Shown here piece after piece: positions 32,457 through 40,565 of a stretch of 64,000 nucleotides of DNA. Each line of letters begins with the position of its first letter. The stretch's first letter is position 1. Both the position numbers and the translations under genes were made by a program. The DNA comes from Skermanella rosea (GTDB lineage: Bacteria > Pseudomonadota > Alphaproteobacteria > Azospirillales > Azospirillaceae): assembly GCF_016806835.2 (NCBI RefSeq), contig NZ_CP086111.1:4953471-5017470 (forward strand), in the 5' to 3' direction. The notes under the pieces are model-generated. The model saw only the letters and a program-made list of their open reading frames with translations, made no database searches and was not told the origin of the DNA.

Positions 32457-34640
32457 TCACGTCGGCCGGCAACCCAGGCGGAGGGCGCCCCAATGGCGGC
32501 CGTGGACCAGGATCGGGGCGCTGACGTCCTTCAGAAGCAGGAACCTGCCGCCGCCCATGTCGCGGCGATAGGTCTGGACCAGGGCTGGCGCCCGGCTGCG
32601 CGCGGCGGCGATGCCGGTGAAATCGTCGAACAGGCGCCGGTTGCGGCAGTTGGCGGTGTTCCAGGCCGGCTCGCCCGGCCGCTGGGGCTGCGAATATTTC
32701 AGGTTGTGGGTCGGCAGATAGCCGTTGCGGTCCACCACGACGCAGAAATCGATCCGGGTCTCCTTCTGGAGCACCGATTCCTGGATCGGCGGCAGCAGGC
32801 GGTCGCACAGCTCCGTGTAGGCGGTCAGGTACTGCTGGGGATCGGTCCCGGGGATCGGCTGGTAGGCGGTGGAGAACATCGCCGCGGCACTGATGCCGCC
32901 CTCGTCGATGGTGTCGTCGAACAGGCCGGAGATCTGGCGCGCCGCCGCCTGCACGGTCTCGATCAGCGCCTCGTCGCCCCGGTGCCAGCGGTCCAGCGCC
33001 TCGGTCAGCGCGGCCTGGACGGCAGGGCCGAGGTCCTCGAAATGGACATGGAGCACTTCCCCTTCCACGGTGGAGACCCGGGCCGTGACCTCGCCGATGC
33101 CCGGCAGGTCGAAGGAAACGGGGGCGTTCTGCCCGGCGGTCCCGGCGGCCAGACGGACCTGGGCGCCGCCGCTGGAGATGTTCTCGACGCAGGCCGGCAC
33201 CGCGCGCCCGTCCACCCTGCATTCGGTCTTGATGTCCACGGTGACGCGCATCGCCCGCCGGCGCTCGGCGAAGCGGGAGTTGCGCAGGCTGGAGATCACC
33301 CGCTTCTCGATGTTGACGACCTGCTCGACCAGTTCAGTCGTGTTGTTGCGCAGCTGGGTCGATACCGTGGTGGTCAGTCCCGCCTGGGTGGCGACGCTGC
33401 CGATCCGCTCGTGCACCCGGCGCACGCTGTCGGCCGTCTGGGTCACGGTCTGGGCGATGTCCTGGGTGACAGCGTCCTGCTCGACCACGGCGGAGGCGAT
33501 CGCGGTGATGGTGTCGTTGACCAGCTCGACCCGGCCGGCCACGTCGGCGATCGCGCTGACCGTGTCGCCGATCGCCTTCTGCATCGACTGGATCTCGGAC
33601 CGGATATTGCCCGTGGCGTCATTGGTCTGGTCGGCCAGCAGCTTGACCTCGTTCGCGACGACCGAGAAGCCGCGCCCGGCCTCGCCGGCGCGCGCCGCCT
33701 CAATGCTGGCGTTCAGCGCGAGCAGGCGCGTCTCCTTGGCGATCTTCTCGATCAGCGAGGCGATCGAGCCGATCCTGTCGGACACGTCGGTCAGGTTGTT
33801 GGCGATGTCGCGGGCCGCCTGGGACCGGACGGTGGCGTCCTGGGCGGCCCCGGTCGAGCGGTCCACCTGCCGCGAGATCTCGGCGATGGAGGCCGAAAGC
33901 TCCTGGGTGGCGGCGGCGATGGTCTGGGCGTTGACGTCGGCCTCGTGGGACGCCTCGGCGACGTGGCCGCCGTCCTCGCTGACCATGCGGGCGGCGCCCA
34001 ACACCTCGGTCGAGGCCCTTTCCATCGCCTCGGCCTTGCGGCGGACCAGCTGGACCGCGTCGTCCAGCTCCTGCTCGAAGGTGTCGGCGAGGTCGAGCAG
34101 CTCGTCCGTCACGTGCTGCTCGGTCGTCGTGTGGGTATAGACGGAAAGCGCCAGCTCCGCCTCCATCAGGAGGGTGCGGATCAGCGTCGCCGCCTGGTCG
34201 GCCGCGGCGTGCCGGCTCCAGCGGTTGCGCTCGATCACCGAGCGGACCAGCCGCTCCAGGATGAAGGAATAGGCCGACAGATAGAAACGCGGCTTCAGCC
34301 CGACCCGGTGGTGGGCCGACCCGATCCGCTGCACCCGCTCCACGTACCCGGCGTCGATGCCGTCGACGAACAGCTTGTGCCAATGGTCCTGCTGAGCGCA
34401 GATCAGGCGGGTGACCATGCCCTCCGCCGCGATCAGCTCCGCCGTCTCGGGAAAGCGCTTCAGGAAGCCGTAGAAATCGGTGAGGATGCCGTCCAGGTCG
34501 GCGTTGACATGGGGGCCGAGCTGCCGGAGCGAGCGCTGCGTGGCACCGTCGATCCGCCAGAGCGCCAGCTCGACCGACGTGCCATGGGACGGGGCCGCGT
34601 CGGGCTGAGCCCGCGCGTCGGACAGCTCGCGAGTGTTCAT
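32457..34640 (-). CDS. globin-coupled methyl-accepting chemotaxis protein with PilZ and C-terminal sensory domain
   Basis: A 727-residue soluble receptor. Residues about 25-180 form a protoglobin (globin-coupled sensor, HemAT-like) with the probable proximal His in [14 protein letters not shown] chemoreceptor signalling domain follows (about 200-470; tip [31 protein letters not shown]). A PilZ domain begins at [11 protein letters not shown], with [10 protein letters not shown], which is the c-di-GMP-binding layout (RxxxR and D/NxSxxG). The last 170 residues form a PAS/Cache-like module ([16 protein letters not shown] to WGALRLG). No membrane segment is seen. It should sense oxygen and perhaps c-di-GMP and signal to CheA. 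It stands alone. Confidence 0.9.
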
Positions 34641-34802
34641 TGGTCATCCCCCCAGTTGCAATCGCGGACAATCGGGCGCCAGGGTTGCAGCGGCAATGAT
34701 CTACGTCAAAAGTATTAGATTAAACGGCCGGGCGCTCTCCTTCGGATAGGGCTGGCCGAGCCTTGACGGGGCCAAGCCGGACTGTCACTGTCGCGTCACG
34801 AA

Positions 34803-34882
34803 GGCTGGGGTGCCGGGCCGATCCGCCCGTGCTGAGATCATACCCATAGAACCTGATCTGGATCATGCCAGCGAAGGGAGCC
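34803..34882 (+). promoter_or_regulatory. TPP riboswitch (THI element)
   Basis: The consensus blocks occur in order: GGCT (34803-34806) pairing AGCC (34879-34882) as P1, GGGGTGCC, CTGAGA at 34832-34837, ACCC, then GAACCTGATCTGG at 34849-34861 and ATCATGCCAGCGAAGGGAG. These are the conserved bases that bind thiamine pyrophosphate. It lies 71 bases before the start of the downstream binding-protein gene and should repress that transporter operon when TPP is abundant. Confidence 0.95.
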
Positions 34883-34918
34883 CGTGGGACCGACCAAGAG
34901 CAAATCGCGGCACTCACA

Positions 34919-34949
34919 GGTTTCCGCTTCGCAAGGAGGAAGGGGAACC
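34919..34949 (+). promoter_or_regulatory. hairpin around the ribosome binding site, likely riboswitch expression platform
   Basis: GGTTTCC (34919-34925) can pair with GGGAACC (34943-34949), enclosing the Shine-Dalgarno AAGGAGG (34933-34939) in a loop five bases ahead of the binding-protein ATG. This suggests control of translation initiation. How the aptamer and this hairpin switch against each other is not resolved by eye. Confidence 0.4.
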
Positions 34950-34953
34950 GACG

Positions 34954-36081
34954 ATGTCCGCCCGGAAGTCCACACTGTTCGCCGCCGCGTTCGCCGCCGC
35001 CCTGTCGTCCGCCGCCGGCTCCGCCGCCGCGGCCGACCTGGACATCCCGGTGCTGGTGCCGGTCACCGGCTTCCTGGCGCTGGAAGGCACCAGCCAGCGG
35101 AACGGCGCCGTCCTGGCGATCCGGGAAGCTCCCGAAGGGGTTACGGTGCGGTCGGAAGTGATCGATACCGGCACCTCCCCCGAAGGCGCGGTAACCGCGC
35201 TGGAACGGGCGTCCGGGCGCGGGACCCCGACGGCGGTCGCCGCTAGCATGCTGGGCACCCAGATGCTCGCCATGCTGCCGCTGGCCGACGAGTACGGCAT
35301 CCCCCTGGTCACGGTCTCCGGCACGGCGTCGATCACCGAGCGCGGCAATCCCTGGGTCTTCCGCTTCTTCCCCGGCGACGGGGTCACCAAGACCGCCCAT
35401 GCCCGCTACGTGGCGGAGGAACTGGGCAAGCGCAGGCCGGCCGTGATCTACCAGACCACCGCCTATGGCCAGAGCGGCCAGGCGCACCTGCGCGACGCCT
35501 TCGGCAAGCTGGGCGTCGAGCCGGTGTTCGAGGAGGGCGTCGATCCCGGCATCCGCGACATGCTGCCGGTGCTGACCAAGGCCATGGCGGCCAACCCCGA
35601 CGTGCTGGTCCTGCACCTGCATTCCGGCCCGACGGCGCTGTTCGTGCGGCAGGCGACGGCCATGAACCCCGGCGTGCCGATCGTCGCCGGCTCGGCCATG
35701 CACCAGCCGTCCACCGCGGCGTTGCTGGAGCCGGCCGAACTGAGGGGCGTCTGCGCCGAGACCTCGGCCTCGCCGGTGTCGGGCGGCTCGCCGGAGATGG
35801 AGCGCTTCACCGCCGAGTACCGCACGGCCTTCGGCACCGAGCCCGACGCCTTCGCGCTCGGCCAGTACGACGGCATCCGCATGGTGTTGGACGCGGCGGC
35901 CAAGGGGGCGGACACGCCGGAGGCCGTGCGCGACGCGCTGGCCAAGGGGACGTACCGCGGGCTCGCCATGACCTACCACTCCGACGGCCGGGGCAACATG
36001 GCCCATTCCGCGGTCATCGTCTGCTACGACGGATCGTCGCGCGTTCCGGCGGTGGTCAAGCGCTACGACGTGGCGCCGTGA
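34954..36081 (+). CDS. LIV-type ABC transporter substrate-binding protein under TPP control
   Basis: A 375-residue periplasmic binding protein (Peripla_BP_6, as in LivK). A signal peptide of about 27 residues ends SAAAAD. The mature part begins DIPVLVPVTGFLALEGTSQRNGAVLAI, with the usual AVTALERA segment, and has FALGQYDGIRMVLDA near the C terminus. LivK relatives bind branched-chain amino acids, amides or other small solutes. The TPP riboswitch upstream argues for thiamine or a precursor (pyrimidine or thiazole moiety); this is inference. The start at 34954 has AAGGAGG nearby. The permease GTG overlaps its stop. Confidence 0.92.
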   Translation: MSARKSTLFAAAFAAALSSAAGSAAAADLDIPVLVPVTGFLALEGTSQRNGAVLAIREAPEGVTVRSEVIDTGTSPEGAVTALERASGRGTPTAVAASMLGTQMLAMLPLADEYGIPLVTVSGTASITERGNPWVFRFFPGDGVTKTAHARYVAEELGKRRPAVIYQTTAYGQSGQAHLRDAFGKLGVEPVFEEGVDPGIRDMLPVLTKAMAANPDVLVLHLHSGPTALFVRQATAMNPGVPIVAGSAMHQPSTAALLEPAELRGVCAETSASPVSGGSPEMERFTAEYRTAFGTEPDAFALGQYDGIRMVLDAAAKGADTPEAVRDALAKGTYRGLAMTYHSDGRGNMAHSAVIVCYDGSSRVPAVVKRYDVAP

Positions 36082-36953
36082 CGGGTGTCGCGCAGCTTCT
36101 GGTCAACGGGGTGGCACTGGGCGCCGCCTATGCGCTGGTCGCCCTGGGCTTCGTACTGGTGCTGAACGCGACCTCGGCCGTCAACTTCGCCCAGGGCGAC
36201 CTGGTCATGGCCGGCGGATTCCTGGCGGTGGCCCTGGCGGGGCTGATCCCCCTGCCCGGCATCCTGCTGCTGCCGCTGGTGGCGGCGCTGATGGCGGCGC
36301 TGGGGCTGCTGGTGTCGCTGCTGGCCTACCTGCCGCTTCGGCATCGCCCGCCGGTCAGCGTCTTCATCAGCACCATCGCGGTCGGCATCATCCTGCAGAA
36401 CGGCGCCACCCTGCTGTTCGGGCCGGAGCCGAAGGCGGCGCCGCCGCTGTTCGGGGGCGGAACGCTGGAGATCGCCGGCCTGCTCGTGCCTAAGCAGTCG
36501 CTCGCGGTCGTGGCGGTGGCCGGGCTGCTGATCCTGGGGCAGCACTGGCTGTTCGCCCGCACCCAGCTGGGCCGGCGCCTGCGGGCGACCGCCCAGGACC
36601 CGGAGATGGCGCGGGCCTGCGGCATCCCCGTGACGGCCATGGTCGCCGCCACCTTCGCGCTGGGCGCCGCGCTGGCGGGCGCCGCCGGGCTGCTGCTGTC
36701 CAACCAGTTCTTCGTGACGCCGACCTCGGGCAGCGGGCTGATCCTGAAGGCCTACATCGCCGTGACCATCGGCGGCTGGGGGTCGGTCCCGGGCGCCGTC
36801 GCCGGCGCGCTGCTGATCGCCGCGTTCGAGGTGCTGGTGTCCGCCACCCTGTCCTACTCGGCGGCGACGGCGGCGCTGTACCTGGCGCTGCTGGCGATCC
36901 TGGCGGTGCGCCCCCAGGGCCTGTTCGGCGAGGCGGCCCGCAGCCGTGCCTGA
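36078..36953 (+). CDS. LivH-type ABC transporter permease
   Basis: A 291-residue permease with about eight membrane segments. It carries the family segments NGVALGAAYALVALGFVLVLNATSAVNFAQGD at the N terminus and RRLRATAQDPEMARACGI in the cytoplasmic coupling loop. The GTG start at 36078 overlaps the binding-protein stop (GTGA), and the end overlaps the next gene by eight bases. It forms the transmembrane pore with the permease half of the next protein. Confidence 0.92.
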   Translation: MTGVAQLLVNGVALGAAYALVALGFVLVLNATSAVNFAQGDLVMAGGFLAVALAGLIPLPGILLLPLVAALMAALGLLVSLLAYLPLRHRPPVSVFISTIAVGIILQNGATLLFGPEPKAAPPLFGGGTLEIAGLLVPKQSLAVVAVAGLLILGQHWLFARTQLGRRLRATAQDPEMARACGIPVTAMVAATFALGAALAGAAGLLLSNQFFVTPTSGSGLILKAYIAVTIGGWGSVPGAVAGALLIAAFEVLVSATLSYSAATAALYLALLAILAVRPQGLFGEAARSRA

Positions 36954-38715
36954 AAACCGGCTCACGAGGATTCCCGGAAGAGGCATTCCGGTTCGGGGGG
37001 CCATGCCGCTGCTGGCGGCGGCCGGCGCGGCGCTCGCGGCCTACGCGCTGCTGTTCGCCGACCCCTACGGGCTGCGGGTGCTGACCGTGGCCGGGGTCTA
37101 TGCGCTGGCCGTGATCGGCTACCAGATGATCTTCGGCAATGCCGGCGCCCTGTCGCTGGCGCAGGGCACCTTCTATGGACTCGGGGCCTATGCCACCGGC
37201 ATCCTGGGCGGCCGGTACGGCCTCGGCTTCGAGGCGACCTTTCCGCTCTCGGTCCTGGCGCCGACCCTGCTGGCCCTCGCCGTGGCGGCGCCGGTGCTCC
37301 GGCTGGAGAGCCATTACTTCGCCCTGGCGACGCTGGGCATCGGGCAGGTGGTGCTGCTCGCCGCGGTGGAATGGCAGGACCTGACCGGCGGCTCCAACGG
37401 GATCGCCGGCGTGCCGGGGATAGAGCTGTTCGGCTGGCGCCCCGGGCGCGGCCTGCCCCTGGCGCTGTTCGTCTGGGCGCTGGCGGCGCTGGGCGCCCTG
37501 GCGGCGTGGCGGATCGGGCGGGGCCTGCGCGGGCTGGCCTTCCCCCTGATGCGCGACACGCCGGCGGCGGCCCGCACGCTGGGCATCGACATCGACCGGC
37601 TACGGCTGGAATGCTTCGTCCTCGGCGCCGCCTATGCCGGCGCGGCGGGAGCGCTCGCCGCCCATATCCAGCGGGTGGTGTCGCCCGAGGTGCTGGAGTT
37701 CCCGGTCATGGTCACGATCCTGACCATGGCGGTGATCGGCGGTCTGGGCAGCGTCGCGGGGGCGCTGGCCGGCGCCGTCCTGCTGACCCAGCTGCCGGAA
37801 TGGTTCCGCGGGCTGGAGGGCGGGTACCTGCTGCTGTACGGCGTGGCCTTGCTGGCGACGGTGGTGGCGGCGCCCTGGGGGCTGGTCGGCCTGGCGGAGC
37901 GGCTGCGCGCGCGCTGGCTGCCGGAGCCGCCCCGCCCGCCGCCGGCCCCGCTGGCGCCGGAGCCTCGGCCGGCGGCCCCGTTACGCGGCCCGGTGCTGTA
38001 TGTCGAGGGTTTCTCCAAGTCCTTCGGAGGCGTCCGGGCGGTCGACGGCGTCGGCTTGGCGATCGATCCCGGCGAGATCCTGGGGGTGATCGGCCCCAAC
38101 GGCTCGGGCAAGACGACGCTGATCAACCTGGTGACCGGCCTGGAGAAGTCGGACGGCGGCAGGCTGTACGTGAGGGGCGTGGATCTGACCGGACGGGCGC
38201 CGCACGGGATCGCGCGGGCCGGGGTCGCCCGGACCTTCCAGACCGCCAGCCTGCCGCCCGGGACGGACGCGCTTGGAGCGGTGGTGGCGGCGCGGATCAC
38301 CCTCGACCGGGATGTCCGGACGGCGGAAGCCCACGCGATGCATTTCCTGGAACGGGCCGGCGCCGCCGACCTCGCCCGCGAGCCTTGCGCGACCCTGCCG
38401 CCGGGGCTTCGGCGGCGGGTGGAACTGGCCCGCGCCATGGCCCGGCAGCCGGCAGTCCTGCTGCTTGACGAGCCGGCCGCCGGCCTGACCGAGGCCGAGC
38501 AAGTCGAATTGGCCAGGATTCTCCGCGCCGCGGCCGACGACGGCGCCGCCGTGCTGATCGTGGAGCACAACATGCCCTTCCTGCTGCCGCTGGCGGACCG
38601 GATCACCTGCCTGGACGAGGGCGGCGTCATCGCCGAGGGGACGCCCGACGCGATCCGGCGCGACCCCCGCGTGCGCGCGGCCTACCTGGGGTCGCCCGGG
38701 CCGGAGGCATCATGA
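36946..38715 (+). CDS. LivM-LivG fusion: permease plus ATPase
   Basis: A 589-residue two-domain protein. Residues about 15-320 are a LivM permease (YQMIFGNAGALSLAQGTFYG; IAGVPGIELFGW). A Pro-rich linker (about 325-345) joins it to an ABC ATPase of the LivG type: Walker A GPNGSGKTT, Walker B LLLDEPAAGLT, and a TFQTASLP Q-loop region. The signature reads LPPGLRRRVELARA, a degenerate form lacking the usual SGG. Such fusions are known in this transporter class. The start is GTG at 36946, inside the upstream gene's end. It overlaps the last ATPase gene by four bases. Confidence 0.92.
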   Translation: MPENRLTRIPGRGIPVRGAMPLLAAAGAALAAYALLFADPYGLRVLTVAGVYALAVIGYQMIFGNAGALSLAQGTFYGLGAYATGILGGRYGLGFEATFPLSVLAPTLLALAVAAPVLRLESHYFALATLGIGQVVLLAAVEWQDLTGGSNGIAGVPGIELFGWRPGRGLPLALFVWALAALGALAAWRIGRGLRGLAFPLMRDTPAAARTLGIDIDRLRLECFVLGAAYAGAAGALAAHIQRVVSPEVLEFPVMVTILTMAVIGGLGSVAGALAGAVLLTQLPEWFRGLEGGYLLLYGVALLATVVAAPWGLVGLAERLRARWLPEPPRPPPAPLAPEPRPAAPLRGPVLYVEGFSKSFGGVRAVDGVGLAIDPGEILGVIGPNGSGKTTLINLVTGLEKSDGGRLYVRGVDLTGRAPHGIARAGVARTFQTASLPPGTDALGAVVAARITLDRDVRTAEAHAMHFLERAGAADLAREPCATLPPGLRRRVELARAMARQPAVLLLDEPAAGLTEAEQVELARILRAAADDGAAVLIVEHNMPFLLPLADRITCLDEGGVIAEGTPDAIRRDPRVRAAYLGSPGPEAS

Positions 38716-39452
38716 CGCCCCGGCCGCTGCTGGCACTCGACGCCCTGTCCGTGTCCTACGGCGGCGCCCCGGTGGTCGACGGCGTCTCGCTGGAGGTGAG
38801 GCCCGGCGAGGTGGTGGCCCTGTTAGGGGCCAACGGCGCCGGCAAGTCCAGCCTGCTGAAGGCGGTGATCGGCTTGTTGCAGGCGGCGGCGGGCCGGGTC
38901 CTGCTGGACGGGTCGGACATCACCCGGCTGGCTCCCGAGCGGCGCGCCCGCCTGGGCATCGGCTACGTGCCGGAAGGCCGCAGGGTCTTTCCCGGCATGA
39001 GCGTGCGCGACAACCTGGAGGTGGCGAGCTTCGCGCCGGCCGCGGGGCGGACGCTGCTGCTGGACCGCGTCTTCGCCCTGTTCCCCCAGCTCCGGGCCAA
39101 GTCGGGCGAGCGGGCCTGGCGGCTGTCCGGCGGGCAGCAGCAGATGCTGGCGATCGGCCGCGCGCTGATGGGCGAGCCGCGCCTGCTCCTGCTGGATGAG
39201 CCGTCCCTCGGGCTGTCGCCGCTGCTGACGGCTCAGCTGATGGCGACGGTGCGCGAGATCGCCGCAGGAGGCACGGCGGTGCTGCTGGCGGAGCAGGCGA
39301 CAGCCCGCGCGCTGGAGGCGGCCGACCTCGGCGCCTGGCTCCGGCTGGGCAGGCTGACGGAAACCGGGAGCGCCGCGGACCTGCGGCGGCGGCTGGAGGC
39401 CGATCCGGACTTTATGGGCAATCCCCTTGCGACGGGCCGGCCGGCCCTATAG
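38712..39452 (+). CDS. LivF-type ABC transporter ATPase
   Basis: A 246-residue ATP-binding subunit with Walker A GANGAGKSS, the LivF-typical YVPEGRRVFPGMSVRDNL, signature LSGGQQQMLAIGRALM, and Walker B LLLLDEPSLGLSP. The ATG at 38712 overlaps the upstream stop. It completes a four-gene importer (binding protein, LivH, LivM-G fusion, LivF) downstream of the TPP riboswitch. Confidence 0.94.
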   Translation: MTPRPLLALDALSVSYGGAPVVDGVSLEVRPGEVVALLGANGAGKSSLLKAVIGLLQAAAGRVLLDGSDITRLAPERRARLGIGYVPEGRRVFPGMSVRDNLEVASFAPAAGRTLLLDRVFALFPQLRAKSGERAWRLSGGQQQMLAIGRALMGEPRLLLLDEPSLGLSPLLTAQLMATVREIAAGGTAVLLAEQATARALEAADLGAWLRLGRLTETGSAADLRRRLEADPDFMGNPLATGRPAL

Positions 39453-39482: not shown

Positions 39483-40565
39483 TTGAACGTGCAGTCTCAT
39501 CTTCTCGCTCTCGCGCTCGGCGCCGCCATCGGCCTGTCGAGCGGCCTTCCCACCGCCGCACTGGCCCAACAGGCGCCGGGCGGCGCCCAGCTGACCGGAG
39601 CGCCGATCGGCGACTGGCGCGGCGGCCCCGTGGCCGACCCGAACGGCAAGTTCGTCTATTGCGTCGCGGAGAACCGCTTCGACAACAAGCTGGCCCTGGT
39701 GTTCGCCCGCAATCCCAGCGGCGAGACCAACATCCTGATCGGCATTCCCGGCGCCGGCATGACACAGGGGACCAAGTTCCCCATGAGCGTCCGGGTCGAC
39801 GAGACGGTCAAGCGGAACTTCACGGCCGTCGCGATGGAGCCGGACCTGCTGGTGGTCCCCACCGGCAAGGACGACGAGCTCTACGAGGGCATGCGCAAGG
39901 GAAGCCGCCTGATCATGCAGGGGCCGACCGACACGGCGATCTTCCAGCTCCGCGGGACTTCCAAGGCGCTGGGCGACCTGCGCAGCTGCGTCCAGCAGGC
40001 AGTCTCGGGCGGCGGCCCCAAGCCGGGCGCCCCGGGCGGGGCCAAGCCGGTCGCGGTCATCCTGCCGGAAGGGCTGCGGGCGCTGCTCGACGCCGCCGGC
40101 CTGCGTCAGGCGGTGCCGCTGTCGCTGGCGAACGTGCCGGAGGACCGCCGCCCGGCCGACTTCGCGTGGCGGCTGGGTCCCGTCTTCGGCGGCGTGCGCG
40201 GGCACCGGGCTCCGCCGGACGCGGATTTCGCGATGCTCACCAACAACTACCTGGACGCCCTGAAGCAGCGCTGCGGCGGCGAGTTCAAGGCCGATCCCGC
40301 CGCGGTCGAGACCCTGCCGCGCGTGACCTTGCGGACCGCCATGGTCGCCTGCACTCCGCCGGAGGGCAAGATCAACGTCGCGATCCTGTTCTTCAAGAGC
40401 CAGGACAACGTCTTCAACGTGTTCTTCCACGAGGCGTCCGACGCCGACGTGGAACTGGCCAAAAAGGCGCGCGACGGGCTGACCCAGGTCGTTCGCAAGC
40501 TCGGATCGGAACAGCCGCCCCAGGCCGGCCAGCCGGCGCCGGCAGCACCGCCGGCGCAGAACTGA
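39483..40565 (+). CDS. periplasmic protein of unknown function, IalB-like in its N-terminal half
   Basis: A 360-residue exported protein: a signal peptide of about 27 residues (LALALGAAIGLSSG to ALAQQ) and a Pro/Ala-rich tail. The N-terminal half (IGDWRGGP, FVYCVAENR, MSVRVDETV, RKGSRLIMQG, GDLRSC) resembles the layout of invasion-associated locus B proteins, with two Cys spaced accordingly; this is a weak match. The second half (FAMLTNNYLDALKQRC to NVFNVFFHEASDAD) is not recognised. The start is TTG at 39483 or GTG at 39489. It lies 30 bases past livF and could be in the same transcript. Confidence 0.7.
   Translation: MNVQSHLLALALGAAIGLSSGLPTAALAQQAPGGAQLTGAPIGDWRGGPVADPNGKFVYCVAENRFDNKLALVFARNPSGETNILIGIPGAGMTQGTKFPMSVRVDETVKRNFTAVAMEPDLLVVPTGKDDELYEGMRKGSRLIMQGPTDTAIFQLRGTSKALGDLRSCVQQAVSGGGPKPGAPGGAKPVAVILPEGLRALLDAAGLRQAVPLSLANVPEDRRPADFAWRLGPVFGGVRGHRAPPDADFAMLTNNYLDALKQRCGGEFKADPAAVETLPRVTLRTAMVACTPPEGKINVAILFFKSQDNVFNVFFHEASDADVELAKKARDGLTQVVRKLGSEQPPQAGQPAPAAPPAQN

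What the first reader, a model, noticed from the sequence alone, without database searches (positions are those of the whole stretch)
34803..39452. TPP riboswitch controls a complete LIV-type (branched-chain amino acid class) ABC importer
The aptamer consensus is nearly complete and lies directly upstream of a binding protein of the LivK class, with LivH, a LivM-LivG fusion and LivF in overlapping order. Known TPP-controlled importers are mainly ThiBPQ, ThiXYZ, YkoEDCB and PnuT-type systems; I do not recall a LIV-type thiamine transporter as a standard case. The simplest reading is a thiamine, pyrimidine or thiazole importer from an unexpected family. The hairpin around the Shine-Dalgarno (34919-34949) suggests translational control.
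Basis: partly seen in the sequence, partly recalled or inferred. Interest (0 to 1): 0.78.

Follow-up and report, generated by a model that had tools for sequence, protein, structure and literature searches.

The report
Vitamin B1 switch on LIV-type importer
A vitamin-B1-sensing RNA switch sits in front of a complete importer of a family usually annotated as carrying amino acids, and the pairing is kept in many related bacteria, often ones missing parts of B1 synthesis, so the importer probably brings in vitamin B1 or a piece of it.

Summary
A TPP aptamer (34796-34896 +, 60.4 bits, Rfam cut-off 54.3) lies 57 nt before a complete LivK, LivH, LivM-LivG fusion, LivF operon (34954-39452). The link is conserved: of 36 alphaproteobacterial genomes found to carry a LivK orthologue, 28 have a TPP aptamer just upstream (25 over cut-off, 3 below), in 12 family groups. 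LivJ's ligand residues S79, Y202 and E226 are replaced. Of the 36, 16 lack thiC and thiG, 6 lack only thiG, 4 only thiC. In 12 of the 16, another TPP site precedes thiXYZ, the pyrimidine importer. thiE is kept in 30 of 31 carriers. By elimination the importer supplies a thiazole-bearing B1 vitamer: hydroxyethylthiazole-like, or intact thiamine or its phosphates. That split is open: ThiM is absent in 29 of 31 carriers, and G107 has no other TPP site. Nine paper searches, with passages from six papers, showed no LIV-type B1 importer. New variant of a known kind; the ligand is inferred.

The parts
34796..34896 (+). TPP riboswitch aptamer (RF00059)
   Evidence: 60.4 bits against gathering score 54.3; conserved in an 11-row leader alignment
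34919..34949 (+). hairpin around the Shine-Dalgarno sequence; possible expression platform
   Evidence: fold, z -1.90; kept only in the closest relatives; weak
34954..36081 (+). LivK-type substrate-binding protein, 375 aa
   Evidence: Peripla_BP_6 7e-49; AlphaFold model pLDDT 85.6; best Foldseek match 3td9
36078..36953 (+). LivH-type permease
   Evidence: BPD_transp_2 5.9e-35
36946..38715 (+). LivM-LivG fusion (permease plus ATPase)
   Evidence: BPD_transp_2, ABC_tran and BCA_ABC_TP_C in one frame
38712..39452 (+). LivF-type ATPase
   Evidence: ABC_tran 3.8e-32
39483..40565 (+). protein of unknown family 30 nt after LivF; possible operon member
   Evidence: no Pfam or NCBIfam match; relatives after LivF in L016, L017, L019, L020, L025

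Best explanation
An ABC importer of the LIV/HAAT type under a TPP riboswitch, made when the cell is short of TPP. When TPP is plentiful the aptamer closes and the operon is shut off, most likely by blocking translation of livK (inferred). The importer brings in a thiazole-bearing relative of vitamin B1; I commit to the thiazole half (hydroxyethylthiazole or close kin), which ThiE joins to the pyrimidine made by ThiC or imported by ThiXYZ, as slightly more likely than intact thiamine. Shown here: the aptamer, the operon, their conserved linkage, the altered binding site, the thi-gene content of the carriers. Inferred: direction and level of control, the ligand, and how the thiazole is phosphorylated.
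For: TPP aptamer at LIV in 28 of 36 carriers, 12 family groups. 22 of 36 carriers lack thiG while 30 of 31 keep thiE (244 of 354 others, p 0.0003 uncorrected). In 12 of 16 carriers without thiC and thiG another TPP site precedes thiXYZ. G135 and G401 have thiC, no thiG, and TPP sites only at thiC and LIV, so they lack only the thiazole half (their LIV aptamers are below the gathering score). G013 has TPP at thiC, thiM and LIV; G398 at ThiXY, thiM and LIV: the thiazole kinase is co-controlled there. Binding-site residues S79, Y202 and E226 of LivJ are replaced in the family.
Against: thiM is absent in 29 of 31 class-sample carriers and in the window's genome, so free thiazole would need an unknown kinase. 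G107 lacks thiC and thiG and has a single TPP site, at LIV, so thiazole alone would not suffice there. The window's genome and 13 other carriers have thiG. The link of TPP-at-LIV with thiG loss is strong only in a subset chosen after seeing the data (19 of 21 against 1 of 7, p 0.0005); on all 36 it is 20 of 22 against 8 of 14 (p 0.036), without two lone-livK genomes p 0.15, and the tree gives only 2 supported independent pairs. thiC and thiG were not searched in non-carriers, so no enrichment of auxotrophs is shown.
Confidence: 0.45

Rival explanations
1. The importer carries intact thiamine or its phosphates (TMP, TPP), doing the job of ThiBPQ.
For: Fits carriers without thiC and thiG, above all G107, whose single TPP site is at LIV. 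No strong thiP match in the 8 carriers of the relatives sample, while G037 (over cut-off) and G018 (331 bits, under the cut-off) have thiP with a TPP site upstream and no LIV; 0 of 8 against 2 of 31 is no significant difference. TMP would need only a ThiL-type kinase, which was not searched in the carriers.
Against: Makes the kept thiC of G013, G081, G128, G133, G135 and G401, and the kept thiE, hard to explain. TPK (PF04263) is absent from 39 of 39 relatives, 8 carriers included, though also from G018 and G037; TPK was not searched in the other carriers.
Confidence: 0.3
2. The importer carries the pyrimidine half (HMP or a derivative).
For: 20 of 36 carriers lack thiC; an NMT1-family protein gene lies on the same contig as the TPP-less operon in L022.
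Against: thiXYZ, the known pyrimidine importer, already stands under its own TPP site in 12 of 16 carriers without thiC and thiG, and in the window's genome. TPP at LIV does not follow thiC (16 of 20 without, 12 of 16 with; p 1.0).
Confidence: 0.1
3. The ligand is not a B1 vitamer but an amino-acid-like or nucleobase-like compound, and TPP control serves some other link.
For: LIV fold. An orotate phosphoribosyltransferase gene near LivF in 10 carriers and beside the lone livK of G206; nucleoside-salvage genes upstream in two Azospirillum plasmids; a beta-eliminating lyase overlapping the start of a TPP-less operon in G373, and a similar frame in G296; a gamma-glutamyltranspeptidase gene beside lone livK genes in G206 and G376.
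Against: 28 of 36 carriers place it under a TPP aptamer, and 27 of 29 best TPP loci read in the relatives adjoin thiC, thiXYZ, thiO, thiG or thiE relatives. LivJ's ligand residues are replaced. The five PyrE proteins scored exceed the cut-off for the ordinary enzyme, so that neighbourhood may be inherited gene order. The lyase and transpeptidase cases lack the TPP site.
Confidence: 0.15

Closest known systems
LIV / HAAT family importers (LivKHMGF, UrtABCDE)
   Same: Gene set and order, Pfam families, fold of the binding protein
   Different: TPP riboswitch upstream, LivM-LivG fusion, LivJ ligand residues replaced; all NCBIfam scores for the Liv and Urt equivalogs are below their cut-offs
ThiXYZ pyrimidine importer
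   Same: TPP-linked ABC importer; present in the same genome
   Different: NMT1-type binding protein and another transporter class
ThiBPQ thiamine importer
   Same: TPP sites upstream of thiP in G018 and G037; the proposed role is similar
   Different: Different transporter family; no strong thiP match in the 8 carriers of the relatives sample
Other B1 transporters scored in marine surveys (thiT, thiV, cytX, ykoF, omr1, ThiPerm, pnuC)
   Same: Uptake of B1 or precursors (passages of PMC10881298 and PMC12442306)
   Different: None is of the LIV type (family knowledge recalled)

Membership tests
TPP riboswitch (RF00059) | Covariance-model score over the gathering score | tested here: met
   60.4 against 54.3 bits
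TPP riboswitch (RF00059) | Binds TPP and represses the downstream gene | not testable with these tools
   needs a reporter or in-line probing
TPP riboswitch (RF00059) | Linkage to the gene kept in relatives | tested here: met
   28 of 36 carrier genomes, 25 over cut-off
LIV / HAAT importer | Binding protein, two permease domains and two ATPases of the right families | tested here: met
   Pfam; fold
Leu/Ile/Val importer (ligand class) | LivJ ligand residues S79, T102, Y202, E226 | tested here: not met
   S79 to G, Y202 to H, E226 to S/T/Q/A with no acid at window residues 246-254; T102 kept; the E226 region is gapped. Roles of the LivJ residues are recalled
ThiBPQ | ThiB/ThiP family membership | tested here: not met
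   Permeases and binding protein fall in BPD_transp_2 and Peripla_BP_6
ThiXYZ | NMT1/THI5-type binding protein | tested here: not met
   Peripla_BP_6; the genome's ThiY is a separate protein
Thiazole salvage route | Thiazole kinase ThiM in the carriers | tested here: not met
   2 of 31 class-sample carriers (G206, G398), plus G013
Thiamine salvage route | Thiamine pyrophosphokinase (PF04263) in the carriers | tested here: inconclusive
   0 of 39 relatives, 8 carriers included, also absent from G018 and G037 with thiP; 28 other carriers not searched

The most novel reading that the evidence does not exclude
A dedicated importer for the thiazole half of vitamin B1, of the LIV family and under TPP control, that lets thiG-lacking bacteria finish B1 with ThiE, with an unknown thiazole kinase in place of ThiM.
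Probability: 0.35. Interest if true: 0.75.

Novelty: new variant of a known kind. Interest (0 to 1): 0.6.

Why it matters
Many bacteria lack parts of B1 synthesis, and the two aquatic surveys whose passages I read score thiB, thiT, thiV, thiY, cytX, ykoF, omr1, ThiPerm or pnuC, but name no LIV-type gene in those passages (PMC10881298 and PMC12442306). If this importer carries B1 or its thiazole half, some genomes now scored as having no route would gain one, and a set of proteins named after branched-chain amino acids would need a new name. It also turns the missing thiazole (or thiamine) kinase of these genomes into a concrete question.

Tried and rejected
Chance aptamer match: rejected, because the score is over cut-off and the linkage recurs in 28 of 36 carriers. 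Intrinsic terminator or sigma-70-like promoter at 34600-35000: none found. Plain leucine transporter: disfavoured by the replaced residues. The thiG pattern as proof of a thiazole ligand: not accepted, because the whole-set test is weak and the tree allows only 2 supported pairs. pyrE neighbourhood as proof of a pyrimidine ligand: not accepted, since the five proteins scored fit the ordinary enzyme. PHROGs: no match for LivK. VIA-align library: not on the machine; the Foldseek PDB search was used.

Counting notes. Counts over genomes use handles; L011/L016 and L012/L017 look like the same genomes, and L021/L072 are identical in LivK, so loci are not added up. The TPP-less state of G376 rests on coordinates. 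Three carriers counted with TPP are under the gathering score (L085 53.4, L073 49.5, L074 48.6 bits): G394, G401 and G135. G206 and G376 show a livK-like gene without LivH, LivM or LivF hits in the stretches read but are kept among the 36 unless stated. thiC and thiG were searched in the 36 carriers only. thiE hits were taken at E up to 1e-8, so TenI-like proteins may be among them. The thiE difference (30 of 31 against 244 of 354) is uncorrected for relatedness and genome size. pyrE was sought only in the loci held; no hit in the window or in the stretches of G077, G081, G100, G101, G108, G202, G220, G237, G296, G334 and G373.
Full report
What is there. A TPP aptamer at 34796-34896 + scores 60.4 bits against a gathering score of 54.3 and is the only Rfam match over cut-off in the window. 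Fifty-seven nt after it begins a LivK-type binding protein, followed in overlapping order by LivH, a LivM-LivG fusion and LivF (34954-39452). Next come a gene of unknown family (39483-40565), ArsC and ArsH; upstream and divergent is a protein with MCP-signal, protoglobin and PilZ domains.

In its own genome. Four TPP sites were found. The other three precede thiXYZ, thiC and thiO-thiG. The genome has thiC, thiG and one thiE-family gene behind an fba-like frame, no thiM match and no TPK match. It looks like a B1 prototroph with a pyrimidine importer and this operon besides. The nearest named LivK records are from Skermanella (89 and 86% identity) and Azospirillum.

Conservation. LivK orthologues were found in 8 of 39 genomes of the relatives sample, the own genome included, and in 31 of 385 genomes of a class-wide sample, three of them in both: 36 carriers. 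A TPP aptamer lies upstream of livK in 28: all 8 of the relatives sample, and 17 over cut-off plus 3 under it among the other 28. The 28 fall into 12 family groups by the codes. Eight lack it: G077, G081, G202, G206, G212, G296, G373 and G376 (by coordinates). Of the 11 named loci, 8 have it; L022, L024 and L026 do not. As a check on the method, 27 of the 29 TPP loci returned as new loci adjoin thiC, thiXYZ, thiO, thiG or thiE relatives.

Binding protein. The AlphaFold model (mean pLDDT 85.6) matches LIV-type binding proteins, best by Foldseek E-value 3td9, also the best profile match by sequence. Aligned with E. coli LivJ, S79 falls on G101, Y202 on H223 and E226 on S253, with no acid at residues 246-254, while T102 and F276 are kept (the E226 region is gapped, and the roles of the LivJ residues are recalled). 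The ligand is therefore unlikely to be held as an ordinary alpha-amino acid.

B1 genes of the carriers. Of 36, both thiC and thiG are found in 10, thiC alone in 6, thiG alone in 4, neither in 16, of which 14 are at least 90% complete. thiE is kept in 30 of 31 class-sample carriers, all but G133, which is 81% complete; in the 13 stretches that I read it sits, by my reading of the translations, mostly among tkt, gap and fba relatives. In 12 of the 16 carriers without thiC and thiG another TPP site precedes thiXYZ genes; G101 and G215 have a TPP site before a more distant ThiX-like cassette; G107 has only the LIV site; G212 has no TPP site. G108 has a third site (see noticed items). G398 also has TPP at thiM, and G013 has TPP at thiC, thiM and LIV. 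G135 and G401 have thiC, no thiG, and TPP only at thiC and LIV, the LIV aptamer being under the gathering score in both.

Reading. A cell with thiC and thiE but no thiG needs only the thiazole half; a cell with thiXYZ and thiE but neither synthase needs it too. In both the operon is the TPP-linked system left over. That points to a thiazole-bearing vitamer. Against the pure thiazole form stand the missing thiM (29 of 31 class-sample carriers) and G107, where a single TPP-linked importer would have to supply everything. Intact thiamine or its phosphates fits G107 but leaves the kept thiC and thiE unexplained. I put the thiazole form at 0.45 and intact thiamine at 0.3.

Statistics, for and against. 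TPP at LIV against thiG: outside Azospirillaceae 19 of 21 without thiG and 1 of 7 with it (p 0.0005; a subset chosen after seeing the data; p 0.005 without the two lone-livK genomes); all 36, 20 of 22 and 8 of 14 (p 0.036); without the lone-livK genomes 20 of 22 and 8 of 12 (p 0.15). On the LivK tree only 2 independent pairs stand on supported branches, too few for any test. Against thiC: 16 of 20 without and 12 of 16 with, p 1.0. thiP: 0 of 8 carriers and 2 of 31 others, p 1.0.

Control. No terminator-like site was found near the leader. The hairpin at 34919-34949 is moderately stable in a 60-nt fold but not in a longer one (z -1.90 and -0.01), and is not kept in the Azospirillum leaders. In 5 of 36 loci (L076, L079, L080, L094, L095) no in-frame ATG or GTG lies between the modelled aptamer's end and the LivK match, so the start site may lie at the aptamer's 3' edge. 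Translational control is the best guess.

Neighbourhoods against the reading. A pyrE gene lies near LivF in 10 carriers (G107, G128, G135, G148, G212, G228, G317, G394, G398, G401) and beside the lone livK of G206; the five proteins scored all exceed the orotate phosphoribosyltransferase cut-off. In G373 a beta-eliminating lyase overlaps the start of livK, and a similar frame does in G296; both operons lack the TPP site. In G206 and G376 livK stands beside a gamma-glutamyltranspeptidase gene without the rest of the operon in the stretches read. Two Azospirillum plasmids have nucleoside-salvage genes upstream. These may mark other ligands in those lines, or inherited gene order.

Literature. 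Nine searches of the open library listed no paper that I could recognise as describing a LIV-type B1 importer or a TPP switch on such an operon. Passages were read in PMC10881298, PMC12442306, PMC9870897, PMC12452182, PMC3766115 and PMC2704228; the other papers were seen only in listings. PMC3766115 counts 19 functional orthologues of TPP-controlled thiamin and precursor transporters in a supplement that I did not see, so a LIV type could be there. The 2002 survey by Rodionov and others was seen only as a reference entry.

Noticed in passing
L106 5615-6655 and 6821-7822 (G108): A TPP site (G108:C180:6642-6770 -) lies between a thiL gene and a gene over the cut-off for a 2-aminoethylphosphonate binding protein (phnS2) that also weakly matches the ThiB-type family.
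   Followed up: partly
L102/L160 (G101), L113 (G215), L152 (G020): TPP sites stand before a second kind of cassette with distant ThiX-, ThiZ- or ThiQ-like genes and an SDR-like frame.
   Followed up: no
L130, L131, L134, L135, L136, L138, L158, L159, L164, L176 and L167: Orotate phosphoribosyltransferase (pyrE) gene after LivF in 10 carriers and beside the lone livK of G206; in L131 its frame begins where the LivF frame ends.
   Followed up: partly
L166 (G376), L167 (G206): livK-like genes beside a gamma-glutamyltranspeptidase gene, without LivH, LivM or LivF hits in the stretch.
   Followed up: partly
L170 (G296), L171 (G373): A beta-eliminating lyase frame overlaps the start of livK in TPP-less operons (Pfam run on the G373 protein only).
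   Followed up: partly
window 39483-40565: Secreted-looking protein with no Pfam or NCBIfam match, with relatives after LivF in two Skermanella and three Azospirillum loci.
   Followed up: no
L006 7663-7890 -: Cobalamin riboswitch (81.3 bits) in the window's genome, just downstream of thiC and before a CobW-like frame (CobW read by eye).
   Followed up: no
L022 1126-3430: NMT1/THI5-like binding protein and amidohydrolase genes upstream of a TPP-less LIV operon in a contig labelled as a betaproteobacterial MAG.
   Followed up: no
window 32457-34640 -: Divergent gene with protoglobin, MCP-signal and PilZ domains in one protein.
   Followed up: no
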